In this document: in pieces, positions 3,758-45,255 of the stretch
How positions within the stretch are numbered: the first letter of the stretch is position 1
How the letters are laid out: every line of letters starts with the position of its first letter
Assembly (NCBI GenBank): GCA_027605045.1
Contig: JAQFWX010000014.1
Location: forward strand, 1,051,391-1,115,390
DNA: 64,000 nucleotides
Reading direction: 5' to 3'
Origin: Phallus indusiatus
Taxonomy: Eukaryota > Basidiomycota > Agaricomycetes > Phallales > Phallaceae
Translations under genes and position numbers: made by a program
Notes under the pieces: model-generated
Seen by the model: only the letters and a program-made list of their open reading frames with translations
What the model was told of the DNA's origin: nothing
The model's database searches: none

Positions 3758-4499
3758 TAGTGATGCCGAAGTTCGGTTCGGGAACCGTTTTGAACCCGAA
3801 CCGAACCCGAACCAACCCCCGGTTCGGCTTATGTAAGCCGAACCGAACCGAACCCGAACTAGTGGTTCAGGTTCGGGTTCGACCATGAGGAAATAAGGGT
3901 GAACCGGTTTGAACCGTGACGAACCGTCACATAATGTCACGTAGTGTCACAGGTGTCACCAGTCACCTAAGTGCTAACTCCATGTGAATTTTGTCGTGAT
4001 TTTTTTTTTATTTTGGCTCTGGAGAGCTCAAAAATTGCCCAAAATGGAAATAAAAAAATATGCCAAGAATATTTTTTGAATATCTACGAGATAAGTTGGG
4101 CGCTTAAATAAGCGCCCGTATTACAAATCATCTAAATCTTCGAAATTTCGAAAATTTAAACTGAACTGAACCAAACTGGACCTAGGCTACACTAAAATAG
4201 TTTATTTATAAGTCTAACACAGGGAATACATCTAAATTATAGGGATAATATTGAGTTTCACAGGTTTGGTTCAGGTTCTGGACCTGAACCGAACCCGAAC
4301 CAAATCTGAACCAAGGAAAATAACTTCAAATTTTCAGAATGGGAAAAATCAGGTTCTGAACCGGTTCGAACCCCGAACCGAACCCGAACCGGGGTTCAGC
4401 TTATGTAATCCGAACCGAACCGAACCGAACATTTGGTTCGGGTTCAGGTTCGCCAAAAAGGGGGGGTGAACCGAACCGAACCGAACTTCGGCATCACTA
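3758..4499. mobile_element. hAT-type MITE inserted in element 1 pol
   Basis: A 742-bp segment is bounded by terminal inverted repeats of about 24 bp starting TAGTGATGCCGAAGTTCGG and ending with its exact complement (…CATCACTA). It is flanked by a perfect 8-bp direct repeat ATTCCTTG at 3750-3757 and 4500-4507. An 8-bp duplication with this kind of TIR is typical of the hAT superfamily. The ends are filled with degenerate CCGAAC(C) repeats in both orientations; the AT-rich core carries a perfect 9-bp hairpin at 4098-4117. No transposase is encoded, so it is non-autonomous. It interrupts the pol frame precisely. Confidence 0.92.
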
Positions 4500-6096: not shown

Positions 6097-6251
6097 TGTT
6101 AGGGCTACTCAGCTCAGACTAGAGGGAGGGGATCCTAAGAGATATATATTGGGAAAATACTAACTACTCACCTAGAGGGAGGGGATCCTAAGAGAACAAG
6201 CTTAGGGACCCTCACTCTAGGTACAGCTACTATATACATAAACGACGACGC
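6097..6251 (-). repeat. Truncated right LTR of element 1
   Basis: The segment starts TGTTAGGG and is the reverse complement of the last 155 bases of the LTR at 6252-6646 (bases 6492-6646), nearly identical. It breaks off upstream of the TATA box and is fused directly to the TGTCAGGG start of the next LTR, forming a head-to-head junction at 6251/6252. Confidence 0.9.
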
Positions 6252-6646
6252 TGTCAGGGTACGCTACCGCCGTCTCTCATTTTCTTATTTATTATCATCG
6301 GCATCGTTCCTTTTCTATTTTATTTATCATTTCCATATTTTACTTTCACTCTCCGTTTCCTTGTTCTGTCTCTATTTCACTTTCTCTACTCGCGCGCGTC
6401 GCGCGCTCGTACCCGGCGTGATGCCCGTGACATCACGTCGCTTAGGTTCGGTTTGGGCGCCTGGCACTTAGCTGTGTCAGGGCCGCACGCCGCGTTGTCG
6501 TTTATGTATATAGTAGCTGTACCTAGAGTGAGGGTCCCTAAGCTTGTTCTCTTAGGATCCCCTCCCTCTAGGTGAGTAGTTAGTATTTTCCCAATATATA
6601 TCTCTTAGGATCCCCTCCCTCTAGTCTGAGCTGAGTAGCCCTAACA
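6252..6646 (+). repeat. Full-length LTR of element 1 family, plus orientation
   Basis: A 395-bp TG..CA LTR (TGTCAGGG...CCCTAACA). It contains a TATATA box at 6507-6512, the AAGCTTGTTCT presumed transcript start at 6540, and two copies of a 21-bp direct repeat with core TTAGGATCCCCTCCC about 60 bp apart. The flanking pentamers (GACGC left, TGTAT right) differ, so it is not a simple solo-LTR insertion. The same LTR occurs as solo copies at 10951-11346 and 20210-20605. Confidence 0.92.
6507..6512 (+). promoter_or_regulatory. TATA box in element 1 LTR
   Basis: TATATA sits 33 nt upstream of the AAGCTTGTTCT motif (6540) that is complementary to the primer site. The spacing fits an RNA polymerase II start at the beginning of that motif. 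The same arrangement is present in the other LTR copies. Confidence 0.6.
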
Positions 6647-8559: not shown

Positions 8560-9185
8560 TTTCTGAAACAAGAAATATTACAAGGGGTGTAGATGTGTCA
8601 CCAAAGGACTGAAGGCAGAATGAACCAAGTATCTTGAACTGTGAGACAGATTGAGAGGGACTAGTATGTTAAAATAAATCAATCAAGGCCGAGTTTTCTG
8701 ATTGTATATTCCAAGTTTTTAAGTCTAGGCTTTGGGGTTGAGGGGACGTCTTTGTGGACCATCGCACTATTGTCAATAAAACATCACTGATCAGTGCTCA
8801 GTGACCATGATCATTGAAGGTGGAACACCAGGAACAGTAATTGAAATTCGACACTGATCTCTCAATTATATCAATATGAATATTCTGATCAGCTTCTCAA
8901 CTAGTACTGTGACAATAAGACTCCTCGCCAAAATTTCCCATAATACAAAATTAGAAGTTGGAGTCGACTAGGTAGGAAAATATTACTTTAGCTGAAAGCC
9001 CCAGCCGGCCCTTAGCTGACGCGACCCGGAGACGGCCCGTGGACAGAGTTTAGCATTTATTTATTGACAGTTGCTATCAATGAGTCACGTTTCTCAGAAC
9101 AAGGTTTACGTGAATATATATGTACATCTTCTTGATGAGAAACGGTTGATACCCTTCATGGTTCTTTTTGTCTTTGGATCTTTGG
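8560..9185. other. Non-coding stretch upstream of gene D
   Basis: No convincing coding sequence. It corresponds in position to the upstream flank of genes B and C and shares only short words with them. It contains a 12-nt palindrome CACTGATCAGTG near 8788. The last five bases, TTTGG, are the left target duplication of element 2. Confidence 0.4.
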
Positions 9186-9505
9186 TGTAACGTTTCGTTA
9201 CTTTTTATAGTGTACCGCGTACGGTACACAAATTTTATCACGCTGTAGTTTCACACCACGAATAACAGACCAAGGGTGCTGTATTTTTTATGGTGTAAAA
9301 CAAAATGCGCGTGCTGAATCAGCACGCGCGTAGCTACTACTAATGTATAGTTATTACATAATGGCTCGCCGCGTCACGGCGAGCCAGAGGCGCTAAGCGC
9401 CTCTATTATTAGAAGTACTAATAGTAATTACTGCAGAGGGCGAAGCCCTCTGCATATGCCCAAGTGGCATATACTCAATCCACCGCATACGGTGGATCCG
9501 TTACA
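9186..9505 (-). repeat. Element 2 3' LTR
   Basis: A 320-bp TG..CA LTR. Eight perfect hairpins follow each other: 9187-9201 (6-bp arms), 9210-9229 (8), 9307-9329 (10), 9363-9385 (9), 9386-9404 (8), 9433-9453 (9), 9454-9472 (7) and 9478-9497 (8). The matching LTR at 18459-18778 appears identical. A diverged solo copy lies at 44935-45255. Confidence 0.95.
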
Positions 9506-9515
9506 TCCTCCCCTT
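9506..9515 (-). promoter_or_regulatory. Element 2 polypurine tract
   Basis: On the minus strand AAGGGGAGGA lies immediately before the 3' LTR. This is the expected site and composition for the plus-strand DNA primer of an LTR retrotransposon, and confirms the minus-strand orientation. Confidence 0.8.
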
Positions 9516-9567
9516 GTGACTTGGACTCCAAGTCATGGGATCGCGAAGAGGAGGCGTCTGACTGTAA

Positions 9568-9846
9568 TCAGTCAGAGGGATTGCTGTAGTCAATCTCCAT
9601 GCTCTCCGAGGCACTCGGATGCGGCGCGTCAAGGTCCTCAGGGGGCCTTAACAATTCCTCGTCCGTCATCTGAATTGGGACGGACGGGGAGTAGACCTTG
9701 TTAGGCTGGCCTGCCACGATGCTGGCAGGTGAAGCCGACGCATGGACGGCGGGGGCGGACGACTGAGTCGTACGCGCCTTTTGTTGGACGATCCAGTCCA
9801 CGGCGCACGCGATAGTCATGCGCGATGCGATTGACATCTTCTCCAT
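9568..9846 (-). CDS. Element 2 ORF3, C-terminal part (frame-shifted)
   Basis: About 92 residues (MEKMSIASRMTIACAVDWIVQQ... to MEIDYSNPSD). It reads on from the ORF3 segment at 9854-10810 if one base is gained or lost near 9855-9862, where SNDTPMEKM continues directly after EVIAPL. It is therefore most likely the tail of ORF3 and not a separate gene. Acidic, Pro/Ser-rich end; no domain recognised. Confidence 0.6.
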   Translation of the reverse strand: MEKMSIASRMTIACAVDWIVQQKARTTQSSAPAVHASASPASIVAGQPNKVYSPSVPIQMTDEELLRPPEDLDAPHPSASESMEIDYSNPSD

Positions 9847-9853
9847 TGGCGTA

Positions 9854-10810
9854 TCATTGGAGAAGGGGCGCGATCACCTCGGTGACGCGTCTTGTCGTCG
9901 CTCCATTGGCATGCATGGAGCGAATCACCTCCTCTATGGTAATGGAGGAGGGGGATTTGCACTCGAAGGAACGAGTGTAGCCTTCCATAAGCGTGGAAGG
10001 CAGGTGGGTGGAGGAATTACCCTTACCACCGAGAACTTCTTCCCACACAGTAAGTGCGGGGTCGAGGAGGCACTCAGCCGCCTTCTCGAGGAACTTGGCA
10101 CGTACTTCACGAGTACGTGTGACTCGTTTGAGCCATGCGAACACCTCAACATCTTGAGGGTTTAATGATCCATCCGACATTAGTCGGATGTAAGGAGGGA
10201 CCTGGTTAGGGTCCGCATTCCAAGTATTGATTAAATACTTGATCTCGGGGTGTATGAGTTCTCCCGAGATAGACACCACCGATGGACGGGTGGCGGCAGC
10301 CTCCATAGCTTCAAGCTTGGCGGTCTTTCTCGCCAGGCGACGCTCCTTCATGGATCTGCGCCAGCGAGTCCATGCGTATGAAATACGCATGTGAACCCCT
10401 CTGTCGTCGGGGTACGTGAACACCGGGGGGTCAGTCCAAACCCGGGTTCCAATTTCGACGAACAATGGTTCGTCGAGGCTGCAGGTGTTATACCATGCAG
10501 TAGGATTGGGGGTGCCAGGCACCAGAGAATGATCCCCACTAACAGTGGGGTCGAAGCCCTTGACGAAGAAGGGCCATGGGTCTCTATTGGAGTCCCATCC
10601 TGGCTTGGTCCGTGGATACGGACCAGAGGGTTTCCTTGGTGAAACCGGGGCAACATCGCGAGAGCCCGATGCCTTGGTTGCATCAGCGTAGGTACGCTGA
10701 GGCTTGCGTTTGGTGGACGACGCGATGGAGGCGTCGTCATCATAGTCGTTATCATCGACTATGTCTTCCATGTCGTCGTCAGACGACATGTCGTTGAAGA
10801 TATCAGGCAA
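9854..10810 (-). CDS. Element 2 ORF3, central part: unrecognised accessory protein
   Basis: A 318-residue open frame downstream of integrase and chromodomain. It has an acidic start (SSDDDMEDIVDDNDYDDDAS), a basic serine-rich stretch, then a folded-looking region with many tryptophans (DPWPFFVKGFDP, PTAWYNTCSLDE, RVWTDPPVF, SYAWTRWRRSMKERR) and a second helical region (IKYLINTWNADPNQVPPYIRLM, VEVFAWLKRVTRTREVRAKFLEKAAECLLDPALTVWEEV). No transmembrane segment or signal peptide is visible, so it does not look like an envelope protein. Its frame opens upstream across the solo-LTR insertion to 11787. I do not recognise the family; function unknown. Confidence 0.75.
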   Translation of the reverse strand: MPDIFNDMSSDDDMEDIVDDNDYDDDASIASSTKRKPQRTYADATKASGSRDVAPVSPRKPSGPYPRTKPGWDSNRDPWPFFVKGFDPTVSGDHSLVPGTPNPTAWYNTCSLDEPLFVEIGTRVWTDPPVFTYPDDRGVHMRISYAWTRWRRSMKERRLARKTAKLEAMEAAATRPSVVSISGELIHPEIKYLINTWNADPNQVPPYIRLMSDGSLNPQDVEVFAWLKRVTRTREVRAKFLEKAAECLLDPALTVWEEVLGGKGNSSTHLPSTLMEGYTRSFECKSPSSITIEEVIRSMHANGATTRRVTEVIAPLLQ

Positions 10811-10950
10811 AGGGGTTGCCTGGGATGGTTCAGGCGCTTTATCGGCCTGGTCTCTCGACCGCTTTTTGGAGGTCGATGGGGTAGTCGACGGGCCTGCCGT
10901 CGACGCTGAACGTTCAAGTTCAGCAATGCGAGCTTTCAGTTCGCAGATAT

Positions 10951-11346
10951 TGTCAGGGTACGCTACCGCCGTCTCTCATTTTCTTATTTATTATCATCGG
11001 CATCGTCCCTTTTCTATTTTATTTATCATTTCCATATTTTACTTTCACCCTCCGTTTCCTTGTTCTGTCTCTATTCCACTTTCTCTACTCGCGCGCGTCG
11101 CGCGCTCGTACCCGGCGTGATGCCCGTGACATCACGTCGCTTAGGTTCGGCTTGGGCGCCTGGCACTTAGCTGTGTCAGGGCCGCACGCCGCGTCGTCGT
11201 TTTATGTATATAGTCGTTGTACCTAGAGTGAGGGTCCCTAAGCTTGTTCTCTTAGGATCCCCTCCCTCTAGGTGAGTAGTTAGTTTCCCTTCCAATATAT
11301 TGCCTTAGGATCCCCTCCCTCTAGTCTGAGCTGAGTAGCCCTAACA
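10951..11346 (+). repeat. Solo LTR of element 1 family inside element 2 ORF3
   Basis: A 396-bp TGTCAGGG...CCCTAACA LTR, plus orientation, flanked by a perfect 5-bp duplication GATAT (10946-10950 and 11347-11351). No internal retrotransposon sequence remains, so it arose by LTR-LTR recombination after insertion. It splits ORF3 in its coiled-coil region; excising it with one duplication copy reconnects the frame. Confidence 0.97.
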
Positions 11347-11351
11347 GATAT

Positions 11352-11787
11352 GACGATTCGCATCGTCAAGGTGGTCTGTCAAGGACTTGACGTCCTTTTC
11401 AGCTTCTTCTAGACGTTCGTCTAGATGGTAGTACTCCCTCTTTATGAAGGGAAAGGCCTTGTAAACGGCCTGCTTGACCATATCATGGTCAAGGATGATT
11501 GCCCCACTGCCAGCGGGGCCTGCCAGGTGACTGGCAAAGTCGTTGCACGCAGTGCAACTATCATTGTTATGATAGACGGATATACATCCGTCCATCGCGT
11601 CTAAGGTCCATTCGGACCTCTGCAGAGCCAATTGAGCTTCTGCTTTTTTGAACCTACTAACAGGTTGCGGCGTAGGCGACCGCGAGCGTGATCGTTCGCG
11701 TTGTTTTCCCTTGCTGTCAGGCATGGGGGGTGTGAGGGGGAAAAGACCGTGAACGGACTTTTGGGTTATATACTTGGGCGGCCTCAT
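11352..11787 (-). CDS. Element 2 ORF3, N-terminal part
   Basis: Starts MRPPKYITQKSVHGLFPLTPP about 70 bp after the end of the chromodomain ORF. It contains a basic Arg/Ser stretch (KGKQRERSRSRSPTPQP), a short region with two cysteines (NNDSCTACNDF) and a predicted coiled coil (YYHLDERLEEAEKDVKSLTDHLDDANRH) that continues beyond the solo LTR as ICELKARIAELERS. With the pieces at 9854-10950 and 9568-9846, ORF3 would be about 600 residues. The DNA here is tiled by hairpins (see findings). Confidence 0.75.
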
Positions 11788-11857
11788 GGAGCGCCCAAGT
11801 GAAAATTACCTCACCGCGTAGCAGTGAAGTGCCAGTGGATCCCTGTGGGTGGGATCT

Positions 11858-12319
11858 TCAAGCAGATCCCCGAGTGGGATCTAGGCGCTTGTTGCTGGTC
11901 CGCGACTCTCCGTGATTGGATAGTCGTGGCAGCTGTCGAGGCTCATTTACGCCTCGTAATTGCAAGTACTCGTCTAGAGCTTGCAAGTCCTTACAGTTAC
12001 TGTAAGGTTCCCAAGTGGTATCCCCAAGGGTCCACTGGACTAGGAACTCGAGATCTTTCTCGCGAGTTCCACTCCAGCGATGAGCTAGGAGTTCCTCGAC
12101 GTGCCATTCAGCATCGTCTGGCTGTCCAAAGTCATACGCCGTGAGTGTATCGCGGCGTGGAAATCTCTCATCGTCGTTGGCGATGTGAGGTTTAATCAAA
12201 TCCACGTGAAATACGGGATTTATGCGACGTTGCTTGAGCTCTTCAGAGAGCTCAAGTTTTACTGTGATATTGTCTTTAACGGACAATATTTTGTATGGTC
12301 CCACATAACGCGGGATCAA
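11858..12319 (-). CDS. pol: Element 2 integrase C-terminus with chromodomain
   Basis: About 150 residues beginning at RYVGPYKIL, the GPY/F module that follows the integrase core, then NPVFHVDLIKPH, and a chromodomain (WHVEELLAHRWSGTREKDLEFLVQWTLGDTTWEPYSNCKDLQALDEYL). Chromodomains direct chromovirus integration to particular chromatin. It is one base out of frame with the integrase ORF ending at 12316, near the GGGAGAG run at 12330-12345, so a single-base indel separates them. Confidence 0.88.
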   Translation of the reverse strand: MIPRYVGPYKILSVKDNITVKLELSEELKQRRINPVFHVDLIKPHIANDDERFPRRDTLTAYDFGQPDDAEWHVEELLAHRWSGTREKDLEFLVQWTLGDTTWEPYSNCKDLQALDEYLQLRGVNEPRQLPRLSNHGESRTSNKRLDPTRGSA

Positions 12320-13506
12320 CTTCTTAACTCTCCCTTGGGGAGGTTGAGATTCCTCGTCGACAGATAGACGAGGTCACCCTCTTTGTACTCCGGTGCATCG
12401 CGCCGTGAGTTGTTCGCGTAGTGAGCCTGTTTAACGCGATTGGCTATGATAGCGTCATGCGCTATCATGAGGTTCCACTTTGCCTGTTGAGCAAAGTGTT
12501 GAACACCTTTGAATTTGGTGTTCGTCTCAATTTTCCTTCCCAAACTGGGAAGGTAGCCGTAGTTGAGTTCAAACGGCGCGAAACCAGTGGTTTCGCTGGT
12601 GCTGCTATTAATAGCAAACTCCACCATTGGGATCCTTTCGACCCAATCTTTTTGATCGTTCTGTATGACGGAACGAAGTATTTGACCAATTGAGCGATTG
12701 GCTCGCTCGGTAGATCCATCCGTTTGCGGATGGAACGCCGTGGACATGAGCAATCGTGTCCCCATTAGGCGTTGCAGTTCCTGCCAAAACTTGGCAGTGA
12801 ATCGTGCATCCCTGTCACTCACGATTGAGTCAGGGACACCGTGGAGTCTTACGACTTCACTGAGGTATAACCAGGCTGTGCCCTTGGCGGTCAGCTTGGT
12901 GGTGGTTGGCATCAGACGAACCATAGAGGTCAGTCTGTCAATCACGACGAATAGGAAGTCGTGGCCGTTTGAAACGGGTAATGGACCGACGAAGTCCATT
13001 CCAATCGATTCCCAAGGTCTATTGGGAATTGGGAGTTGTTTTAACAGACCACTGGGGTGATTATTTTCCCCTTTATTGGTCTGGCACGTTCCGCAGGATC
13101 TGCAGAACGTATCGATGTCTTCAATCATCGATTTCCACCAGTACGCTTGTCTAACGTACTGAGACGTTTTGTAACGTCCAAAGTGCCCAACAATTTGGTG
13201 GGCCTCACTGATTATAATCTCAGTGATCCTCCTCCCCTTGTAAAATGCGTTATGGGGGACGCATAATACATCGCGGAGGAACTGATTCTTGGTAAAGATC
13301 AGTTGGTTTTTAATTCCAAACGCCTTGTGAGCGTTTGGGTTGGCAAGGACCAGCTTAAATACTGGGTCCTTGTGATAACCTTGCTGTATCAGCGAGGTAA
13401 ATTCAGCAAAGCCCTCAATTTTGGCTTTGAGAAGCTTGCTGTCTTGCTCTGCACTTAGGGCAAGTATGTCCTCATCGGATTGCGCTTCTGTAATATCAGA
13501 AGGCAT
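12316..13506 (-). CDS. pol: Element 2 integrase
   Basis: A 396-residue segment with the HHCC zinc-binding domain (EAHQIVGHFGRYK...CRSCGTC), then the catalytic core: GMDFVGPLPVSNGHDFLFVVID (first Asp), SIVSDRDARFTAKFW (second Asp) and HPQTDGSTERANRSI (Glu). It ends YLSTRNLNLPKG, at which point a frameshift leads into the GPY/F-chromodomain ORF. It is in the same frame as the upstream gag-pol ORF, separated only by one TGA codon at 13528-13530. Confidence 0.92.
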   Translation of the reverse strand: MPSDITEAQSDEDILALSAEQDSKLLKAKIEGFAEFTSLIQQGYHKDPVFKLVLANPNAHKAFGIKNQLIFTKNQFLRDVLCVPHNAFYKGRRITEIIISEAHQIVGHFGRYKTSQYVRQAYWWKSMIEDIDTFCRSCGTCQTNKGENNHPSGLLKQLPIPNRPWESIGMDFVGPLPVSNGHDFLFVVIDRLTSMVRLMPTTTKLTAKGTAWLYLSEVVRLHGVPDSIVSDRDARFTAKFWQELQRLMGTRLLMSTAFHPQTDGSTERANRSIGQILRSVIQNDQKDWVERIPMVEFAINSSTSETTGFAPFELNYGYLPSLGRKIETNTKFKGVQHFAQQAKWNLMIAHDAIIANRVKQAHYANNSRRDAPEYKEGDLVYLSTRNLNLPKGELRS

Positions 13507-13527
13507 AGTATTTGAGGGACCTTCTAC

Positions 13528-16503
13528 TCAAGGTTCCTCTCGTACTCGTGAACGTGTAATGACGTTCACTCTCACTTCATCCCTTCTTTCGATGGGAAGA
13601 TGATCCCCTTCGGGATCAAGTCTAACGTCAGCATTGACATATACCTCCGGAGGGTGAACCTCATCCGGAGTGTCCTCTTCGTAATAACGAGAGAGGCCAT
13701 CGGCGACATTGTTAGTGACGCCCTTGACATGAATCGTCTCGTAATCAAAACGAGACAGGTATTCATACCACCGTGCTTGGCGCGGTGACATGCGAGGCTG
13801 GGTCTTGAAGTGGACCATGGCCTCATTATCCGTTACTAGGGTGAATCTACGCCCTAGTAGTTTGTCTTCCCACTTAAGGAAGGCTTCAAGTACCGCGATG
13901 AGCTCATGCTCATGGGTGCGGTAGTTGTACTGAGCAGGGGTGAACTTCTTCGAGAGAAACCCTGCTGGCCTACATGTTTGCCATGTAGGCCCTTGCCCAT
14001 AATAGGCACCGACGCCACATTTAGAGCCGTCGGTTACGACCCAAATTGGATCTGGGTCGTCCACGTTAATAGGCTTCAAGATAGGAGCCTTTCGCGTGAG
14101 TGCTTTGATTGAATCAAAGCACTTGTTCAACAACGGCGTCCATACGAACGGTCTGTTGTTGTACGTACACCCTGATAGTGGTGTAGTGTATGCGGCTACC
14201 CCTGGTAGGTATGCCGCAACGTATTGTACGAGGCCCAGAAATTTCTGGACATCGTTGTACGTGCGTGGAGTTCTCCACTCACGTATTTTATCCATCTTCT
14301 CGTGATCGGGATGGATGCCATCATCGTCGATGATGTGGCCTAAGCACTCCAGTCGCTTAGAGTACAAATCAACTTTACGACTACTTAGGTAAAGTTGTGC
14401 TTCTCGCAGACGCGAGAAGGCATTCTCTAGATGCTGCTGATGCAGATCTATTGTGTTTGAATAGACGAACACGTCATCTATGTATGCATCCGTCGAACGA
14501 CCGATGCAGTCCCTAAAGATGTGGGTCATCAGACGTTGAAACGTCGATGGGGCATTGCAGTCTCCTTGCTGCATGACATGGCTCTTGAAAGTGCCATAGA
14601 TGGTGGCAAAGGTTGTCTTGTGGACGTCCTCTGGGACTATGCGTACTTGCTCGTACGCCTCAGTCAGATCAATCTTTGATCTGTATTTGTGCCTCGCCAC
14701 GTTCTGGCGGATGGTTTCCTGGTCAGGGAAGGGCGTTACGTCCTTCTCTGTGTTTTCGTTCTGCAGACGCAGATCGAACACGGTCCGTAGTGCTAAGACT
14801 ACGGCTCGTTTCTGCAGGCAAAGCATGGGGATTGCCTGTGTAGCTACAGTTGGTTCCCACCAACCTGCAGCTACGTATCGCTGAATCTTTTCAGCGAGTA
14901 GCGCTTTGAGCGCATCCGGGCACCTGGGAAGGTGGTACCGGATCTTCTTATTGGGTTCAATAAGAGGAATCTGGTGATTCACTTCCCGAAATGGGGGAAG
15001 TCGGGAAGGGACAGGACCGAACAGGTCACTGTACTTGTTCTTCCAGTACTCGATGAGTGCTGGGATATTCTCTTCCGTCATCGCAGGGACGGAGGAGCTG
15101 GGATGTTGGGTGCTGGCTAGCACCATCGCTCCTGTTTCAGGAGCGTGTCCAATCACATGGTGATTGGTGTCAATCACCTCGCCGTCGCGGGTGATTGTAC
15201 CTCTACTGAAGTCCAGGCAGATGTTATAGCGTCTCAGGAATGGGACGCCAATGATCACATCATAGTGATCGATGTTGACGATGTCGAAGTACTCTTGGAC
15301 ATCGATGCCTCCGAATTGGATGCGGGTGTACGTTCCATACTGGATGGAAGACTTGCTGCCCTTAACGGCCAGCTGTAGCACGACAGGTTTGTCGAGCTTG
15401 AAGGTTCTTGCCCCGGTGGCAAGGGAGAAATGAGGGGACATGATCATCCCCTGGCATCCACTGTCGACTAGGCAGTGGGCCAATTGGCCATTGACTGGCC
15501 AGAAACCCTCAATGGGTTTCGATGCGTTTCTGTCTCGTGTCGGGGCACGAGAGCTCACTCTAGCCGTATGGTCATAGAGTGGTTCCTTGCTCGTAGCGAG
15601 CGAGGACTCGTTGTCATCCAATAGCGATGACTTGTGGACTGCGAAATGCAGTCTACGCTCCTCATACTCGTCACCACTGGTGAGGAGCATGTACACACTG
15701 GGACCATTGTCATCATCGTCCCATTGGTATTGAATACCCTCGTCGTCCTCGACGGGGTCGTTGGTGGGCTCGTCTTGGGCCACCTCTTCCTCCACAGCTT
15801 GTTCAGCTGTGGGGCTTTCCACGTTCTCCTGCGGGGCATCGTTCGATGTCTCGCCAGAGGTCTCTTCAACCTCTTCGATACGACCCACATTGGCTCGTAC
15901 CTGTCTCAGTCTGGGGCACGCATTTCTGTAGTGTCCCACCTGCCCACAGTTGAAACACGTGGGAGGAGTAGTGCTAGTACGATTGTTCGTACTAGTTGGG
16001 GCAGTCCTAGCGGGCTGCGAGTGATGATTTCTCGAGCTTGATGAGCTCGAGGGGCGATTCCCCAATGGGGAATTGCCATTAGTTCGCGTCTCATGAGGAC
16101 GCGCAGAGGGACCGTGGTTCCTCTGGTTCAAGCGCATATTGTTTGAATGCGCTTGTCTGGCCAAGTTGGTGTGGCTGCTGCTGCTGCCACTACCACTACT
16201 GCCACTACTACCCGTTGGACGGGTAGTGCTTCCTTGGGAGGCCGTTATCGACCTCCGCTTCTTGAACGCCTCCTCTACTTGGATGGCGAGTGCAAGAAGT
16301 TCCTTAGCAGACATCTGCTCAGGACTACCGCCTCTGAATGCTACTTCAGCGGCGAGGCTGTGGTTCAGCCCATCAAGGAACCTCCTCCTGAATGTATAAT
16401 CATCAGGAGGGTGCGCTAGTCTGTTGGCTAGCGTGAGTAACGCACTCATGTATTCGTGTACAGAGTGCGATCCTTGCCGTTCGCGTTCGAACTGGATCGC
16501 CAC
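13528..16503 (-). CDS. gag-pol: Element 2 Gag C-terminus, protease, reverse transcriptase, RNase H
   Basis: A 991-residue intact frame. It opens with the second half of capsid (QFERERQGSHSVHEYMSALLTLANRL, RRFLDGLNHSLAAEV), a Ser/Thr-rich linker, one CCHC knuckle (CFNCGQVGHYRNACP), an acidic linker, an aspartic protease with DSG instead of DTG (HCLVDSGCQGMIM), reverse transcriptase with YIDD (DAYIDDVFVYSN), and RNase H (VVTDGSKCGVGAYYG, HEHELIAVLEAF, LVTDNEAMVHF). Gag and protease-RT are thus fused in one frame. A TGA codon stops it just before integrase; this may be a mutation or a readthrough site. Confidence 0.94.
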   Translation of the reverse strand: MAIQFERERQGSHSVHEYMSALLTLANRLAHPPDDYTFRRRFLDGLNHSLAAEVAFRGGSPEQMSAKELLALAIQVEEAFKKRRSITASQGSTTRPTGSSGSSGSGSSSSHTNLARQAHSNNMRLNQRNHGPSARPHETRTNGNSPLGNRPSSSSSSRNHHSQPARTAPTSTNNRTSTTPPTCFNCGQVGHYRNACPRLRQVRANVGRIEEVEETSGETSNDAPQENVESPTAEQAVEEEVAQDEPTNDPVEDDEGIQYQWDDDDNGPSVYMLLTSGDEYEERRLHFAVHKSSLLDDNESSLATSKEPLYDHTARVSSRAPTRDRNASKPIEGFWPVNGQLAHCLVDSGCQGMIMSPHFSLATGARTFKLDKPVVLQLAVKGSKSSIQYGTYTRIQFGGIDVQEYFDIVNIDHYDVIIGVPFLRRYNICLDFSRGTITRDGEVIDTNHHVIGHAPETGAMVLASTQHPSSSVPAMTEENIPALIEYWKNKYSDLFGPVPSRLPPFREVNHQIPLIEPNKKIRYHLPRCPDALKALLAEKIQRYVAAGWWEPTVATQAIPMLCLQKRAVVLALRTVFDLRLQNENTEKDVTPFPDQETIRQNVARHKYRSKIDLTEAYEQVRIVPEDVHKTTFATIYGTFKSHVMQQGDCNAPSTFQRLMTHIFRDCIGRSTDAYIDDVFVYSNTIDLHQQHLENAFSRLREAQLYLSSRKVDLYSKRLECLGHIIDDDGIHPDHEKMDKIREWRTPRTYNDVQKFLGLVQYVAAYLPGVAAYTTPLSGCTYNNRPFVWTPLLNKCFDSIKALTRKAPILKPINVDDPDPIWVVTDGSKCGVGAYYGQGPTWQTCRPAGFLSKKFTPAQYNYRTHEHELIAVLEAFLKWEDKLLGRRFTLVTDNEAMVHFKTQPRMSPRQARWYEYLSRFDYETIHVKGVTNNVADGLSRYYEEDTPDEVHPPEVYVNADVRLDPEGDHLPIERRDEVRVNVITRSRVREEP

Positions 16504-16504
16504 C

Positions 16505-16852
16505 TCACTTCTCGAGTGGGGTGGGAGGAATCGTTCGTGTAGTCTCCGTAGCGGGGACTAGGGTCCACTCATGCATGGGACGAGTACCTCGTTCCACGTT
16601 CTGGGTGAACCACTCTTGTGCCAACCCTTCTAGGCGCATGCCTAGAAAGGAGAGTTGCTCTGCTTGACTGACTTCTCCAAGCAGGTGGTTTACGCGTAGC
16701 CAGCGTAACAGACCCGACACAAAGTTGTCGAAGTCCTCGGCTCTGGACGAGCCGCTATATGTGGGCGGGAGCCCTATCTTCGCTCCTGCTTTCGCTAGGG
16801 GCGAGTTGCCTGGCATCATATCCCTGTTTGCAATCAGGGCTTCTTGAACCAT
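16505..16852 (-). CDS. gag: Element 2 Gag capsid, first half
   Basis: About 115 residues with the retrotransposon gag pattern (IGLPPTYSGSSRAEDFDNFVSGLLRWLRVNHLLG...LSFLGMRLEGLAQEWFTQNV). It continues naturally into the 16503 frame, which supplies the rest of the capsid, but is one base out of frame at 16503-16510 (GAGAAGTGAGG). Either a mutation or recoding within capsid; the former seems likelier since gag normally is not shifted here. Confidence 0.8.
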   Translation of the reverse strand: MVQEALIANRDMMPGNSPLAKAGAKIGLPPTYSGSSRAEDFDNFVSGLLRWLRVNHLLGEVSQAEQLSFLGMRLEGLAQEWFTQNVERGTRPMHEWTLVPATETTRTIPPTPLEK

Positions 16853-16854
16853 GG

Positions 16855-17387
16855 CTATGACGCCCTCAAGTACTGGGGCGTCGTCGTTGAAAGGGTCAAA
16901 CCTTTCAACACGTTCCTCATCGAACGGTGTGGCGCGGAGATCCTCGCCATACTGTGGTCGACGAGCGTATCCATCATATGGATCGATACGTGGTGCTTCT
17001 GCTGGGTTAGCAGATGCTTGCCTCTGCCCATTGGGCTCGGCACTTTGCCTTGGCAGTTGTCTGCCAGGGGTGATGCTCTGTCGTCTGGACGACTTGAGCT
17101 TGTGGCTGGGTCTGGCGATGGGATCCTATCGCCAGTGATGGCATTATAGCCACCTTCAAGCACACGAGCATGGCGGACCGCGTTCATACGCGCGTCCTCG
17201 CGATGCGGATCCTATCTTGGATGATCCGCATTTGCTGCTCGTTGGGAGTGTCAGTCTCGAGAGAGCCTGCTACAGCTTCCTCGAGCGCGTTAGTGGCCGT
17301 CTCCACAGCCCGTGCATGCGTACGGATTGCTCTGTCGGAGAGTAGCCTTGCTATCCTCTGGTATTCGAGGGCAGCTTGGGCGACCAC
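16855..17387 (-). pseudogene. gag: Element 2 Gag N-terminal linker, frame-shifted pieces
   Basis: Two overlapping frames (17184-17387, ALEYQRIARLLSDRAIRTHARAVETATNALEEAV; and 16855-17187) lie between the N-terminal Gag ORF and the capsid ORF on the same strand. They probably belong to one protein broken by two single-base shifts. The first piece is strongly helical. Confidence 0.5.
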
Positions 17388-18373
17388 TTCAGCATCCTCT
17401 CGTGGGGTGCTCCATTTCGCGACTGGTTCACCAGTCGCGTGGCTATCTCGGTATCGATATAGTCACCAACCGCGTCAGACTCGTGAGGCGGTTGTCTTGT
17501 GAAACGGTGCATTCGTCTCACTGTTTCTCTGCCAGCCTCTATTTCGGGGCCGGGGTTTCTAGGAGCTGTATATGCCGTAGCTCCTTGAGTAGGAGGTCTA
17601 TCAGGACGCGTACTCGGTCCTGGGGTAACGTTCTGAGAACGTTGTCTGGTGCCTGTTGGTGCAGGCTCAGGGGATTGGGAATTACCAGCTGTCGCTGGTG
17701 ACGGACTGGCATATGTCGGTCCCGTCGGTGTAACAAACCTAGCTTGTGGGGCTGGGTTTGTGAATTGATATGCAAGGCGACTCGTCGGCCCTGCTGGTCT
17801 AGGACGAGTAGATCCAGTACCTGATGCAGGCGGATCTACCGCTCTGCTTTTTCCTTTGTCAGAGCGTGCTCGTGCAGGCTCTGCTTCAGGAGACAAGTCT
17901 GTTGTCCTGACTTGGTCCCTATCAGTGCCCGTGGTAACAGGCTCTGGCTCGGGGTTTTCAACTCCTGCGTTGACGTTTTCGATTAATCGAGCTAGTCTCT
18001 GCAGTTCTGACGGGGACATATTCCCGTTCCTCACGCCATCGAGCAACGATGCGTGAACAGCGTTCATGGCCTCATCCCTTCGGATGGACCTGTCGCTCCT
18101 AACGCTAAGTCTGGAGCGACCAGATGCTATGGACTTTACGTCCTCATCTTCTTCATCAGCAAGTTGGGGCTGATGGTCCATCGTCTGCGACGCAGGACGA
18201 GTGGGATTTTGGGTAGGTGCATCCACTCTCTCCCATGTGGATGACTCTCCTTCGAGGGTTCCTTCCCTAGACGGGTCGGGATTTTCGGTTTGCACTGGCC
18301 CGGGTGGGTCAGGCTGATTGGAATCAGGTGTACCACGATCTGGTGCACTCTGACTCCTGGTAGTAGGAGCCAT
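17351..18373 (-). CDS. gag: Element 2 Gag N-terminal region
   Basis: A 340-residue open frame whose ATG lies 86 bp inside the 5' LTR. The sequence is low-complexity, rich in Pro, Thr, Ser and Glu (APTTRSQSAPDRGTPDSNQ), with one helical stretch (RDEAMNAVHASLLDGVRNGNMSPSELQRLARLIENVNA). Long disordered N-terminal Gag extensions are common in fungal Ty3/Gypsy elements. It runs out of frame at about 17360. Confidence 0.8.
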   Translation of the reverse strand: MAPTTRSQSAPDRGTPDSNQPDPPGPVQTENPDPSREGTLEGESSTWERVDAPTQNPTRPASQTMDHQPQLADEEDEDVKSIASGRSRLSVRSDRSIRRDEAMNAVHASLLDGVRNGNMSPSELQRLARLIENVNAGVENPEPEPVTTGTDRDQVRTTDLSPEAEPARARSDKGKSRAVDPPASGTGSTRPRPAGPTSRLAYQFTNPAPQARFVTPTGPTYASPSPATAGNSQSPEPAPTGTRQRSQNVTPGPSTRPDRPPTQGATAYTAPRNPGPEIEAGRETVRRMHRFTRQPPHESDAVGDYIDTEIATRLVNQSRNGAPHERMLKWSPKLPSNTRG

Positions 18374-18458
18374 TGAATCCTCCTGTAATAGGAAGGGTTA
18401 ATTTCGCTTGCTTAATACAGCGGCGGGTTGTTTTTAACGCCTTTGGTGTTAAAAAAGA

Positions 18459-18778
18459 TGTAACGTTTCGTTACTTTTTATAGTGTACCGCGTACGGTAC
18501 ACAAATTTTATCACGCTGTAGTTTCACACCACGAATAACAGACCAAGGGTGCTGTATTTTTTATGGTGTAAAACAAAATGCGCGTGCTGAATCAGCACGC
18601 GCGTAGCTACTACTAATGTATAGTTATTACATAATGGCTCGCCGCGTCACGGCGAGCCAGAGGCGCTAAGCGCCTCTATTATTAGAAGTACTAATAGTAA
18701 TTACTGCAGAGGGCGAAGCCCTCTGCATATGCCCAAGTGGCATATACTCAATCCACCGCATACGGTGGATCCGTTACA
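18459..18778 (-). repeat. Element 2 5' LTR
   Basis: Identical by eye to the LTR at 9186-9505 over 320 bp and followed by the right target duplication TTTGG (18779-18783). The primer-binding site should adjoin 18458 on the minus strand, where the sequence is TCTTTTTTAACACCAAAGGC; I could not match it to a tRNA end or to the LTR itself. Confidence 0.95.
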
Positions 18779-18783
18779 TTTGG

Positions 18784-35639: not shown

Positions 35640-36699
35640 CCTACTACTGCTAACATAGGAGGATTTCGGATCGTCACGCCATTTGAAAATAAATTGAGAG
35701 ACATTTACCTTGAAAATGTTGTATGTTTGACAAACACCGAGGGTTTTTAATGACCACTTGAGGAACCCTGGCGAGGCTGACCTTCGCATTACTTGTCTAT
35801 TATAGCATGGGAGCTTCAAGTTTAGAAGACCTCTGTCGATGCTCTCCGAAATTTTAACATGCACGTTCTCATTACTCCGTGCAGCATTACTCGCAGCTTT
35901 ATCGGAGAAAAGTATTGAGAGGGTTCAAAAGGGTGCGATGGACGCAAGATGGAGTCTGATGGACGTGACAGTGACTTCTGGAGGCCGTGCCGTGCCGGAC
36001 TCGGACCGTATTTACTTCAAACTCAATTTCCCTTCCTTTCCGCTTTTTCATTTCTTCAACATCTTTATAAAATTTGGATGCATTTTCATCATTCTGTTTT
36101 TATAAAATCATTGTCACTCGATGGCATTGACTCGGAGGATTCAATCTGTGTACTCTCTCTCGGATCTCTGTCAGAAATCGGGAGCGGATTCCTGAGTATG
36201 TTGTATACCCCATTCAAACGCTTGATTATTTAGCGCCTAATTACATAATATGTATATACTGTAAATTAGATTCCGCGACTCATATTACTATTTCTGTCAC
36301 TCTTTCTGATTCGCGAAGTCTTTCCTTTCGTGGGATAAACGTATTGCTACTCAGAGAGATTGGTAAATATTATACTTAACCTTGAGTTCGAAATGATTAC
36401 CTTTGTTTTTCCTGATACCCGAAAAATATTTCTCTTCCAGACCCTAGCCCAAGCTCAAGCCAACTGCCAGCCAGACTCCGGTATTGGCACACTGGCAGCT
36501 AAAAGCTGAAAACTGAGTAGGGACAGCGATTGTAGGAATTTGATCGGCCGAAGGGTAAATGTTTTAGTAGTTTCTCAGGCTTATTACATTTTCAGTACCA
36601 TGTCGCAGGCAACAATAATGTTAATTCGGTTAACGATACAGAAAAGAAGGAATATTCTAGTTTTATATCAAGTCCAACATGCAAGAAATGATTATTATC
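35640..36699. other. Intergenic, divergent of gene B end
   Basis: Contains the presumed promoter and 5' UTR of the gene at 34939-35639 and no convincing coding sequence. AT-rich after 36000. Confidence 0.35.
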
Positions 36700-38456
36700 T
36701 TAAGCCGACTCTTCGCATCCAGCTTCGACATTTAGCGATCCTACTGGTAGGGGTTCGATATCGTCACCAGCACCTTCCATGACCACAGCGTTTTCGTGAT
36801 CGCTCATTTCCACCATAATAGACTGGTGCATATAACCAATCACACTTTGAAATTGAAAGCTCGATAACGTTATATTCGTGGCTTGAATTACTGATGAATT
36901 TTGTTGACGAAGATCCAAAGTGAAGCCCGTGAGTAGGATAGCCGATATACTAGTAGTTTATAGATGAATAAGGTGAACCTTGAAATAAGAAGGTAGGTCA
37001 CACCTTCTTCCGAAGCCGTTCAGGATAAATGTCACCCCCTGATGTGGTAGTATAAATCTGGACTTGAGACTGCACTACTGATGCAATATTTTGACAATAA
37101 AGTGTACTCACAGTCTTCAGTCCGATCTATGGATCAAAATCAAATCTTAATAAAAAAATCAGAATTAGCATCGATTTACTAGGTTAACGACTGCAAGAGT
37201 GCCACTGAAACAAACTACAAAGCTATTTCAAAGAGGCGACATCAGACTTTGACAAAAGAATATCAACTTGAGTATTGTTCAAACCTACCAGAACCGTGAT
37301 ATAACTGCAATCCTCATTATTCCATTATTTAACAACTTTCAAAGTATAATTGGAACTTACTCTGTCTACGGAATACAGAAACAAGGTCGTTGTTTTTTCG
37401 AATGCCAGCTTCACCCTTCAGCTTCCAAGGAGCCCAAGTATTCCATAAACAAATACCAAAGATAGCTAATTCCAATAGAATGACTGAGATGTTCCACAAA
37501 ACGTACAACAGGTTAAGTCCGGCTAGATCATATCATAGTTAAAGCACCATAAGGTGAGTACGCTTTCATCAAGACTTTACCAACAAAACTGGAAAAGAGT
37601 CAAGGTTCACATTTTCAATAAGGTAATTTGAAATAACAGACGTTGTCGGAAGACATCTACCAAATATTACAGAGGCTAAACGAGGGAAAAAATGAAGTGA
37701 GCCAATAGTATTGTACTAGGAATAGAATCCTCACTATAAATGTTTACAATGAAACCTCCCACTGAAGGGAAGATCAAGGTTCCAAGTATGGCCTTATTCC
37801 CTTGGCACAGGGCATATGCTCGAATAATAGATATGCCTGATCCATAAATGTAAAACCATTTTCTCATTTATGTCATATTGGACTAACCATGGATACCAAC
37901 ATCTGCTATCAAAACCATAACATCACCTATGTTAGCCAGGTCGTTGCAAAAGCTTTTACTTCTTTGAGATAGATTGATTTTTTGGAAATAATGATGTCTT
38001 GTTACCTTGAGGCATCCTACAGTGAAGGAATGTTCAGCGTTGTTTGGACAATAAAGTAAACTGATTTGGCTTATCACCAAGAAACTCAACCAAACACTGA
38101 TTGCTTGGGTGATTAACATTGCATATCTCGCCATCGCGTAAAGTAAAGTCGGAATAGTGAATGGTTTGGGCGATTTCCACATATACCTCGCTTCTCGTGG
38201 TATGTTCAACACCGTATCGTAAAATATAAGCACTGGCGTATCACTTTTAACAATTAACTGTGCATTTGCAGTTTTTCAGATATGGGATAACTCACCAAGA
38301 GCGCTCAAATTGCAAAGTTCAGCGACATAACTAATAAGTTCATTCATTGGTCAAAGAGTAAACACTCAATCTCCATGATATAACTCACTCCAAATATACT
38401 TCTTGAATTAAAACATCGATGTTGCCACTAGTAGCATTAATGCTATTGTTGTTCAT
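36700..38456 (-). CDS. DUF6533-like multi-pass membrane protein, gene B
   Basis: About eight short introns. Exon 1 (from 38456) MNNNSINATSGNIDVLIQEVYLE; exon 2 YVAELCNLSAL; exon 3 (about 37995-38250) DTPVLIFYDTVLNIPREARYMWKSPKPFTIPTLLYAMARYAMLITQAISVWLSFLVISQI; then GISIIRAYALCQGNKAILGTLIFPSVGGFIVNI (37740-37850), further helices, and a last exon (36700-36890) with NSSVIQATNITLSSFQFQSVIGYMHQSIMVEMSDHENAVVMEGAGDD. The YDxxLxxxREVxxxW pattern followed by RxYAL matches DUF6533 proteins of Agaricomycetes; role unknown, probably plasma membrane. Closely similar to gene C at 47291, its tandem duplicate. Confidence 0.65.
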
Positions 38457-40443
38457 TTTCAGAAATGAGGGATGAAGCTACAGATGTACCAAATGACTGA
38501 GGTGGTGAGAGGAATGTAATATTTTGTCTTTTCAAGTTTAACAGACTGCTTCGTTAAATATTAGCAATTTTGATCATTGGTCTGGGCCTCATCTTCAGAG
38601 TACCTTCCACGGTATGGTCTTTAGAGTACTACTCTCAGGCTGTCGCCTTTCATACCGCAAGATGACATGCTCCGAAGATAAAACCCAGATCAATAACAGA
38701 TCAACAATCAACGACGACCCCGGCTTCTGATTTCGTGCTTTTACATAGATTAGCTATTTCACCGAATTATAGCTGACAGTGTGTACTTGAAGCCCACCAC
38801 TAGTCGTAATGCCCTAGGCGACTTCGATATAGTCAACATGCTAGTTGATTTTCCTTCCAATTATCATCATTACCTCTGGTCTAAGAGTAAGGCTAAAGAA
38901 ACCACCGCAATCTTGCACCAGTTAATTATGGATTTATTCATATTGTCAGGGGAAAACGTGGTGCATATTCCTATATCCGGTGACGGATCAGATATTAACT
39001 GTGAAAGATGTTTCTTTAAGAAGCAATAGATTGATATGAGACGGGGGCAAAGCTCAGGTGACTTCGAAGTAACTATTAGAACCCGAACGCCCCATGTCAA
39101 AAAGAATACACACCTTCCTCGAATGAGGCGCCGCGTTATCTCAACGACGAGAAAAACCAAAAAAAGGACTCAAAACCGACTTACCATTTTACGACTCATT
39201 GTATTATGAAATGATGTTGAGACAACTATATAAGTCACGGAAACCGTCAAGTTTTGAAGTAAAAAGATTGATTCTGTCAGTAAATCTTCCATGTATTGAA
39301 ACCTAATTAATCTAACAGATGATGTTGTTCCGTTCGGAATTGGAGTTCCCAGAGAGTCTCGTTGATGAAGGCCTAGAATAAATTGGTGGGTGAGTAAAAT
39401 GGCTGAAAAGCTTGCCATCGGAAATGAAAAAAAATGTGCGCTTCAAGTTGTTGGTTCGAGTTACGCCACAGAATCTATTAACACTGGCATACCTAGCCTC
39501 CACAAAAAAAAAGAATGTGCACTTGAATGAGTACCTATGTTAGAGGATCTCTCTAAGACCAGTGATGGAAAAATAATCTCAAAAGGTTTCCAGAGGCTAA
39601 AATGAGACCGGCCGATAAAAAGACTTTGCGATTTTCAAGCCCATTATAACTCGTAATACACTTACAATCCCTTTAAGTGTCTAAAATAAACCCTCTTGTA
39701 AAGAATATGTACCTGAAAGATCTAGTGAGTATATTTGAATGATCAGCAAGCCTAACAAAATCCGTGTAAAAGCATGCACACATCGCGCACTCAACCACGT
39801 TGACCTTGAACACCAGTTTACTCGCGATTACTAGACGTCGCACAATTCAACCCGTCGCGTGAACTTCTGCATGTTACAGTGAGGATCTCTCGATATCCCA
39901 TACCTGCATATCTGCAGGGAAAGAAAAATTAAAGTTATTCACATATTTGTTTGAGAAAACGAGTCAGCTTACTTTACATCGAGTGCATAAAATGAGCCAG
40001 TACATATGAGAGGCTCGGCGACAGACAGCGGAAAGGACAAAAAGGGGTTACGAATGTTGGTCCATAATTGGTTGAAACGATCCCAAAGTATATGGAAAAT
40101 GCGATTGAATAGGTCTGACTCAACCACTCATCCGTTATTGCAGCTGAACTGCAAAGCGTGAAAAGACTGTGCTGTCTCCAACCTATTAGAAAGTGAGCAA
40201 ATAGGTCTAAAACCAATCAAATTCCAGTTGAACATTTGATAGAATAAACAAGCTTACAGAACCTCTAACATTGTGCTGGCAACGCTGTAGGCAATGACGC
40301 TACGAGAGATTGAAGTCCCCGGGAGAAAACTGCTCTAGTGGAGCACGGGATCTCAAAAGACTGTCTTGAACAAAAATCAAAAAAAAAACAATCAACCGCC
40401 AAACGGCCGCATGAAAGGCGTAAAATTATAGTCAAATCGGTAT
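38457..40443. other. Upstream flank of gene B, part of the tandem duplication
   Basis: No convincing coding sequence. It aligns with 49038-50880: shared stretches include the block with CCGCGTTATCTCAACGAC (39131 and about 50255), TGTTGTTCCGTT (39324 and 50443) and the AGGTGCACCTC site (40445 and 50884). The part before LINE 2 also carries a degenerate bidirectional promoter-like AT-rich area. Confidence 0.55.
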
Positions 40444-44934: not shown

Positions 44935-45255
44935 TGTAACGTTTCGTTACTTTTTATAGTGTACCGCTTGCGGTACACAGTTTATATCACGCTGTAGTTT
45001 CACGCCACAAGTAACAGACCAAAGTGCTGTATTTTCTTTGTGGAGTAAAACAAGTTGCGCGTGCTGAATCAGCACGCGCGTAGCTACTACTAATGTATAG
45101 TTATTACATAATGGCTCGCCGCGCCGCGGCGAGCCAGAGGCGTTAAGCGCCTCTGTTATTAGAGTAAGTAATAGTAACTACTGCAGAGGGCGAAGCCCTC
45201 TGCATATGCCTAAGTGGCATATACTCAATCCACCGCATGTGGTGGATCCGTTACA
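44935..45255 (+). repeat. Solo LTR of element 2 family inside LINE 2 ORF2
   Basis: A 321-bp TGTAACG...CCGTTACA LTR flanked by a perfect 5-bp duplication TCTGA (44930-44934 and 45256-45260). Listed as plus by sequence direction, the same as the plus-strand text of the LTRs of element 2. It differs from those at roughly 25 positions, but those changes spare the arms of the large hairpins. Confidence 0.96.

What the first reader, a model, noticed from the sequence alone, without database searches (positions are those of the whole stretch)
9186..18778. A retrotransposon whose whole length, coding regions included, is tiled with short perfect hairpins
Reading element 2 end to end, perfect inverted repeats with 6-11 bp arms and short loops recur every few tens of bases. 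Examples outside the LTRs: 9899-9922 (8-bp arms), 11408-11425 (8), 11473-11493 (9), 11542-11558 (7), 11558-11575 (7), 11575-11592 (7; the last three are tiled end to end), 12233-12256 (9), 12446-12468 (9), 12535-12553 (7), 13834-13859 (8), 13967-13991 (10), 14100-14122 (11) and 18092-18120 (8). In random sequence, a perfect 7-bp stem with a loop of 3-10 is expected about once per 2 kb; five stems of 7 bp or more lie within 200 bases at 11400-11600. The hairpins lie in gag, pol and ORF3 without destroying protein motifs, so they are fitted to synonymous or tolerant codons. Elements 1 and the LINEs do not show this. Possible causes: repeated reverse-transcriptase template switching that perfects imperfect palindromes over many cycles; selection for ordered RNA structure in packaging or translation; or evasion or use of RNA silencing. 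I know of no described element with this property.
Basis: partly seen in the sequence, partly recalled or inferred. Interest (0 to 1): 0.92.

Follow-up and report, generated by a model that had tools for sequence, protein, structure and literature searches.

The report
Retrotransposon armoured with tiled hairpins
A jumping gene in a fungus (probably a relative of stinkhorn mushrooms) carries short perfect hairpins along its whole length, genes included, and their stems vary less between copies than the rest of it; they likely make its RNA fold up on itself, which would help it escape the host's RNA silencing.

Summary
All 13 listed hairpins exist. The element has 111 perfect inverted repeats (arm >=7, loop 3-12) against 5.0 in dinucleotide shuffles; codon-preserving shuffles of one copy's ORF1 and ORF3 give 54 vs 4.6 and 29 vs 2.2. 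Element 1's ORFs, both LINE RT ORFs and most flanks show no excess. Among 13 copies, stem sites vary less than rotated controls (82 vs 118), also at third codon positions and in the LTR. A sister family has the property more weakly, mostly with different hairpins: folding is kept while individual stems turn over. [quoted passage not shown] Signs of template-switch origin were sought and not found. Best reading: selection for self-folding, likely shielding from antisense pairing and RNA silencing; the function is untested and packaging is the main rival.

The parts
9186..18778 (-). whole hairpin-tiled Ty3/gypsy element (family A copy), sense on the minus strand
18459..18778 (-). 5' LTR (320 bp), seven perfect hairpins with arm >=7 (loop 1-12)
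9186..9505 (-). 3' LTR, identical to the 5' LTR
9181..9185 (.). target site duplication TTTGG (other copy 18779-18783)
17354..18397 (-). N-terminal extension of the gag-pol ORF (348-aa open piece), no Pfam family; lowest hairpin density
13531..16557 (-). zinc knuckle, aspartyl protease, reverse transcriptase and RNase H piece (1009 aa); 33 hairpins vs 2.1 in codon-preserving shuffles
12319..13527 (-). integrase piece (H2C2 and rve); 16 hairpins vs 1.2
11861..12373 (-). open piece at the place where copy L011's ORF2 carries SH3_Tf2-1 and Chromo domains (assigned by position, not scanned with Pfam itself)
9857..10975 (-). ORF3 piece (373 aa); in L011 ORF3 is 599 aa with weak coiled-coil matches only; 17 hairpins vs 1.6 in the part beyond the nested LTR
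14099..14123 (.). example hairpin, 12-bp arms, loop 1
13967..13991 (.). example hairpin, 10-bp arms, loop 5
11542..11592 (.). three 7-bp hairpins set end to end
10951..11346 (.). nested 396-bp LTR-like insert (TG..CA, GATAT duplication), not hairpin-tiled (1 repeat with arm >=7)
44935..45255 (-). solo LTR of the same family (91% identical to the element's LTR), TCTGA duplication; stems conserved

Best explanation
This Ty3/gypsy retrotransposon family carries perfect short hairpins through its LTRs and genes whose stems vary less between copies than the rest, likely because selection keeps its RNA folded on itself, which is predicted to shield it from antisense pairing and RNA silencing. Shown: the excess over codon- and dinucleotide-preserving nulls, its restriction to the element, its presence in all eight near-full-length copies examined and, more weakly, in a sister family, the lower variability of stems, and the turnover of individual hairpins between families. 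Inferred: that the lower variability is purifying selection; that what counts is the total amount of local self-pairing and not particular hairpins. Untested and inferred: that the gain comes from keeping sense and antisense RNAs from annealing and from hiding target sites from small RNAs, with arms (at most 12 bp here) too short for Dicer. The absence of G-U enrichment would fit a need for both strands to fold.
For: Excess hairpins. Copies: 105-114 repeats with arm >=7 in each of 7 further near-full-length loci. Constraint: 82 variable stem sites vs rotated-mask mean 118.3, 0 of 1257 rotations as low; third codon positions 33/299 in stems vs 301/1650 elsewhere, p=0.002; LTR differences 2/124 in stems, 6/23 in loops, 18/173 elsewhere. 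Both-sided Watson-Crick changes at 4 of 766 pairs; element to L011: 4 compensated, 0 uncompensated double changes, background 69 to 46. Sister family B: arm >=6 70 vs 12.9 in codon shuffles, mostly at other places (6 of 41 A hairpins kept). Folding excess (MFED) 40-42% sense, 33% antisense; B 15/12%; LINEs -1 to -2%; MS2 27.5, Qbeta 31.1. No G-U enrichment over A-C in near-perfect stems. Host has Piwi-domain matches at 8 places and RdRP matches at 10. GORS is described as spread over the genome, indifferent to which bases pair, poorly conserved in position, and making sequences inaccessible to probe hybridization (passages).
Against: Element 1 (at least 38 matches, 97-100% identical) and the LINEs live in the same silencing-competent host without hairpins, so shielding is not needed for success; the property follows the element's lineage, which suits packaging or another element-specific cause as well. 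Hairpins are not evenly spaced (gaps up to 568 nt), so they are no complete shield. Codon positions 1 and 2 show no stem constraint (12/283 vs 81/1666; 16/294 vs 60/1655). A's hairpin pairs are kept in B hardly above background (0.668 vs 0.649, same-residue codons). Near-perfect stems show A-C mismatches more than G-U (35:9 in A, 11:4 in B), which strict both-strand symmetry does not predict, though A-rich unpaired positions may explain part of it. Copies are related, so counts are not independent. Dicer was not searched for; no RNA, small-RNA or probing data exist here.
Confidence: 0.42

Rival explanations
1. Selection for a compact, hairpin-rich genomic RNA that Gag packages or that survives in the particle, as dispersed stem-loops do in MS2-like phages. 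The benefit lies in particle assembly, not in hiding from silencing.
For: The property follows the A/B lineage, whose members share a long N-terminal extension and ORF3, and not the host; the hairpins cover LTR and genes, i.e. the whole genomic RNA; MS2 and Qbeta have the nearest folding excess.
Against: No shared loop motif among the loops listed. Selection on the sense RNA alone would tolerate G-U pairs, yet G-U is not enriched over A-C; MS2 and Qbeta also show about equal G-U and A-C, so this point is weak.
Confidence: 0.27
2. Template switching during reverse transcription or DNA replication makes and mends palindromes; hairpins are a mutational by-product with no function. Described for RNA genes in PMC8794818 (abstract and start of the introduction seen).
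For: Stems are perfectly Watson-Crick; the property is lineage-specific and could follow from one reverse transcriptase; hairpins turn over between families.
Against: No arm-replacement signature: 0 of 41 hairpins with one arm >=60% and the other <=15% diverged (control mean 1.3), mean arm difference 0.208 vs 0.192. No excess at codon positions 1 and 2 in stems (0.344/0.228 vs 0.333/0.279). 61 of 66 hairpins polymorphic among copies differ by a single arm substitution, and 12 of 13 clusters are not neighbour copies. Stem mending should leave about as many compensated pairs as reversions; 0 compensated pairs are seen in LTR stems that differ at 2/124 sites. Density is lowest in the fast-evolving N-terminal region.
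Confidence: 0.13
3. The folding strand that matters is the minus-strand cDNA or an antisense RNA; hairpins act during reverse transcription, where G-T wobble on the minus strand appears as A-C on the sense strand.
For: Mismatches in near-perfect stems: A-C 17 vs G-U 3 (strict), 35 vs 9 in A and 11 vs 4 in B, while polymorphisms among copies are even (36 vs 31).
Against: Folding energies do not favour the antisense strand (MFED 33% vs 40%; z -3.48 vs -3.67); A-A mismatches are raised too, so A-rich unpaired positions explain part of the asymmetry.
Confidence: 0.1
4. Chance or base composition.
For: None; element 1's single block (3771-4290) shows that local palindromic blocks do occur here.
Against: 111 vs 5.0; 54 vs 4.57, highest of 100 shuffles 10; sharp edges.
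Confidence: 0.01

Closest known systems
[quoted passage not shown] PMC7642675: passages)
   Same: Folding excess over order-shuffled controls through the whole coding genome; indifferent to which bases pair; stems poorly conserved in position between relatives.
   Different: Host is an LTR retrotransposon with a DNA stage; folding excess 40% here, against published values of 7-17% for many structured viruses and 23.4% as the highest recorded in vertebrate RNA viruses there (other shuffler, so only roughly comparable); built of perfect 7-12-bp Watson-Crick stems.
Single-stranded RNA phages (MS2, Qbeta; fetched as yardstick)
   Same: Dense local hairpins through coding sequence; G-U and A-C about equal in near-perfect stems.
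   Different: Lower MFED (27.5, 31.1%) and far fewer perfect stems: arm >=7 7 in 3.6 kb and 15 in 4.2 kb vs 104 in 9.2 kb.
Yeast Ty1/Ty3 genomic RNA structures (PMC11381356: abstract, outline, passages)
   Same: LTR retrotransposon RNA with structured regions spread over the genome.
   Different: The passages I saw describe no end-to-end tiling with short perfect hairpins; not compared on sequence here.
Template-switch hairpins (PMC8794818: abstract and start of the introduction)
   Same: Perfect Watson-Crick stems.
   Different: Its expected one-arm, multi-base footprint was not found.

Membership tests
GORS | MFED above 3% over the genome | tested here: met
   A 40-42%, lowest window 21%; B mean 15.4% with windows down to -2.0%; threshold from PMC3950689 passages
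GORS | structure spread through coding regions, not only termini | tested here: met
GORS | pairings not conserved between relatives while overall folding is | tested here: met
   6 of 41 hairpins kept; pairs kept 0.668 vs 0.649; B's own excess is much weaker than A's
GORS | positive-strand RNA virus genome | tested here: not met
   LTR retrotransposon with RT and integrase; so 'works like', not filed as a member
GORS | compact RNA inaccessible to probes, weaker innate recognition | not testable with these tools
   needs RNA
Ty3/gypsy LTR retrotransposon with chromodomain | gag-PR-RT-RH-INT order | tested here: met
   copy L011; window pieces
Ty3/gypsy LTR retrotransposon with chromodomain | TG..CA LTRs with 5-bp target duplication | tested here: met
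Ty3/gypsy LTR retrotransposon with chromodomain | chromodomain | tested here: met
   L011 ORF2, Chromo 25.4 bits against a cut-off of 25.1 (barely); B 17.1 bits, below it
Template-switch hairpins | one arm replaced at a stroke | tested here: not met
Dispersed packaging signals | recurring loop motif bound by the capsid protein | tested here: inconclusive
   no recurring short loop sequence (simple tally only); binding not testable

The most novel reading that the evidence does not exclude
An LTR retrotransposon lineage has recoded its entire genome, LTRs and all genes, into tiled short Watson-Crick hairpins as structural armour of both RNA strands against RNA silencing: genome-wide ordered RNA structure in a retroelement, and denser than in the RNA phages measured.
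Probability: 0.35. Interest if true: 0.92.

Novelty: new variant of a known kind. Interest (0 to 1): 0.8.

Why it matters
If right, wholesale RNA folding is not confined to RNA viruses but is a strategy open to genome-resident elements, imposed on coding sequence through codon choice. It offers a natural experiment: in one fungal genome a hairpin-rich family (A), a weaker sister (B) and hairpin-free neighbours (element 1, LINEs) face the same silencing machinery, so small-RNA sequencing could ask directly whether self-folding protects an element. It also gives a clean case for how stems arise and turn over inside protein-coding sequence.

Tried and rejected
Template switching: rejected as the main cause. 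Chance and codon bias: rejected. Specific conserved hairpins across families: rejected for most, since A's pairs are kept in B hardly above background, although a few conserved-protein hairpins do covary (e.g. TAGGTC/GACCTA against CAGATC/GATCTG). A hard cap on arm length: first seen in B, then put aside, because chance extension of 6-bp stems gives few 8-bp ones and one 9-bp stem lies just upstream of B's gag-pol ORF. Strand of action from G-U vs A-C: inconclusive. Codon-register bias of stems: none clear. Regular spacing: none. Relatives elsewhere: none in IMG/VR; pol gave 7 protein hits, the best 29% identical (only 7983 best candidates scored); ORF3 none. Structure of the ORF3 piece: uninformative (mean pLDDT 40.4; single sequence). 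Other gypsy families of the genome: 3 groups in 30 loci, one representative each shuffled: arm >=7 3 vs 1.2, 5 vs 1.2, 5 vs 2.4; arm >=6 6 vs 6.4, 7 vs 6.6, 17 vs 7.9, so the third may have a slight excess. Naming the host: RdRP hits (7 proteins; best Clathrus columnatus 59%, then Hysterangium and Sphaerobolus) point to stinkhorn relatives (that these are stinkhorns or their kin is recalled); the species was not pinned.
Full report
WHAT IS THERE. The element runs from 9186 to 18778 on the minus strand, with identical 320-bp LTRs and a TTTGG target duplication, so this copy is young. Pfam finds zinc knuckle, aspartyl protease, reverse transcriptase, RNase H and integrase in its open pieces; the window copy is broken into several frames and carries a nested 396-bp LTR-like insert. 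In another copy (L011) the order is ORF1 gag-pol 1981 aa, ORF2 318 aa with Tf2-1-type SH3 and a borderline chromodomain, ORF3 599 aa with weak coiled-coil matches only: a Ty3/gypsy element with a long N-terminal extension and a third ORF.

HOW FAR ABOVE CHANCE. Perfect inverted repeats with loop 3-12: arm >=7 111 vs 5.0, arm >=8 68 vs 1.0 in dinucleotide shuffles. Codon-preserving shuffles, which keep protein and codon usage, remove the signal: window pieces 5 vs 0.4, 33 vs 2.1, 16 vs 1.2, 17 vs 1.6; L011 ORF1 54 vs 4.57 (highest of 100 shuffles 10) and ORF3 29 vs 2.21 (highest 7). The excess lies at loops 3-15 and is weak or gone beyond 16-30. Element 1's ORFs and the LINE RT ORFs show none. 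RNA folding z-scores in 120-nt windows: A -3.67 sense, -3.48 antisense; B -1.33 and -1.28; element 1 -0.11; LINE 0.03; a host stretch 0.13. The edges are sharp. Density rises along the element, from 4.3 per kb in the N-terminal extension to 16.1 in ORF3 and 15.6 in the LTR (L011).

COPIES. The genome (67.2 Mb, 206 contigs) holds many copies: two LTR searches each scored 40 of 157 candidates. Seven further near-full-length loci have 105-114 repeats with arm >=7. With the 12 other copies that were mapped (7 near-full-length, 5 partial), stem sites vary less: 82/1532, against 57/610 in loops and 545/6732 elsewhere; rotating the stem mask gave a mean of 118.3 and in 0 of 1257 positions a value as low. 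At third codon positions it is 33/299 vs 301/1650 (p=0.002); at positions 1 and 2 there is no significant difference. With stems defined in one copy and differences counted between two others the deficit remains in 5 of 5 comparisons (p 0.026 to 5.5e-5; they share copies and are not independent). In the LTR, which is non-coding, the element's LTR and the 91% identical solo LTR at 44935-45255 differ at 2/124 stem sites, 6/23 loop sites and 18/173 other sites. Of 127 hairpin centres, those with enough coverage split into 61 present in all covering copies and 66 polymorphic, of which 61 differ by a single arm substitution. Both-sided Watson-Crick changes occur at 4 of 766 pairs. These are the signs of purifying selection on stems, read with the caution that the copies are related.

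SISTER FAMILY. A pol search finds a family 65-66% identical over nearly the whole query (ORF1 as a whole 1032 identical of 2287 aligned columns). Three loci fetched from it are one family, about 98% identical. It too is enriched: arm >=6 70 vs 12.9 in codon-preserving shuffles, but arm >=8 not (0 vs 0.9). Its hairpins are mostly elsewhere: of 41 mappable A hairpins 6 are kept, and A's stem pairs are kept in B at 0.668 against 0.649 for non-stem pairs in same-residue codons; the reverse, B's stems in A, is 0.763 vs 0.646. So the property is shared while most hairpins are new in A.

HOW DO THE STEMS ARISE? Template switching would replace one arm at a stroke. The arms of A's 41 mappable hairpins are no more lopsided in divergence from B than local controls (0.208 vs 0.192), none shows one new and one old arm, codon positions 1 and 2 are not more diverged in stems (0.344/0.228 vs 0.333/0.279), and 12 of 13 clustered differences among copies are not neighbour copies. 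Point substitution with selection fits better.

WHICH STRAND? Selection on sense RNA alone should tolerate G-U pairs. In near-perfect stems G-U is not enriched over A-C: 3 vs 17 in a strict count, 15 of the 17 A-C pairs being fixed in the covering copies, one polymorphic and one lying in the nested insert; 9 vs 35 in A and 4 vs 11 in B. Polymorphisms are even (31 vs 36). MS2 and Qbeta give 7 vs 5 and 7 vs 7. This argues against a constraint on sense RNA alone, but does not settle whether both strands or mainly the minus strand matter: A-A mismatches are raised as well, and energies do not favour the antisense strand.

YARDSTICK. With one method (350-nt windows, 8 dinucleotide shuffles each) the mean folding excess is 40.0 and 41.9% in two A copies (lowest window 21-23%), 15.4% in B, 6.1% in element 1, -2.1 and -1.4% in the LINEs, 27.5% in MS2 and 31.1% in Qbeta. 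Element 1's mean includes one window of 40.4%; I take this to be the palindromic block at 3771-4290. Published GORS values, with another shuffler, are 7.5-10.7% for HCV, about 15% for SARS-CoV-2 and 23.4% for the highest vertebrate virus on record there (passages). The same paper describes GORS as indifferent to which bases pair and poorly conserved in position, and says that structured genomes are inaccessible to probe hybridization.

MECHANISM. I commit to selection for overall self-folding of the element's RNA, with shielding from antisense pairing and small-RNA silencing as the likeliest benefit. For it: the host has Piwi-domain matches at 8 places and RdRP matches at 10 (six-frame matches split by introns, several with stops inside, some perhaps duplicate contigs); the arms stay short; the stems are Watson-Crick and fold on both strands; particular hairpins do not matter. 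Against it: hairpin-free elements thrive in the same genome, and gaps of up to 568 nt remain. Packaging is the main rival; nothing done here separates the two cleanly.

NOVELTY. Five searches of the held library listed no paper on a retrotransposon tiled with hairpins or described as GORS; most subscription papers are not in that library. I rate it a new variant of a known kind: GORS-like behaviour in an LTR retrotransposon, with denser perfect stems than the RNA phages measured.

Noticed in passing
window 10951-11346: Nested 396-bp LTR-like insert (TGTCAGGG..CCCTAACA, GATAT duplication), related to repeats at 6.1-6.6 and 20.2-20.6 kb; not found inside the seven other near-full-length copies compared.
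   Followed up: partly
window 44935-45255: Solo LTR of the hairpin family (second LTR subfamily, 91%) inserted between the RT and RNase H parts of a LINE ORF, with a TCTGA duplication.
   Followed up: yes
window 3771-4290: Palindromic block rich in GGTTCGG/CCGAACC-type hairpins (arms 9-12) between element 1's ORFs; hairpins resembling two of its members (GGGCGCTTAAAT.., AAAAAATATG..) lie in sister-family locus L024 (about 1434-1503, element orientation).
   Followed up: partly
L024, about 1170-1743 (element orientation): Hairpin-rich stretch (arms up to 13) upstream of the gag-pol ORF, missing at the same place in L025, so probably a separate insertion; left out of the family B counts except for the folding list.
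   Followed up: partly
window 6097-6646: Inverted repeat with 155-nt arms, 99% complementary, 240 nt apart.
   Followed up: no
window 36663-38550 and 47254-49131: Direct repeats about 10.59 kb apart, 80-84% identical in five to six blocks.
   Followed up: no
window 12319-16557: The window copy's pol is open in two pieces split by one stop codon, while many other copies read through this part as longer frames; the window copy is thus probably not autonomous.
   Followed up: partly
L033, L034: Another gypsy family of this genome with a slight hairpin excess (arm >=6 17 vs 7.9 in 3.2 kb); may be a weak third case.
   Followed up: no
genome G000: Many RdRP and Piwi-domain places; some pairs look nearly identical (C111/C79, C6/C140), perhaps duplicate contigs of one locus.
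   Followed up: no
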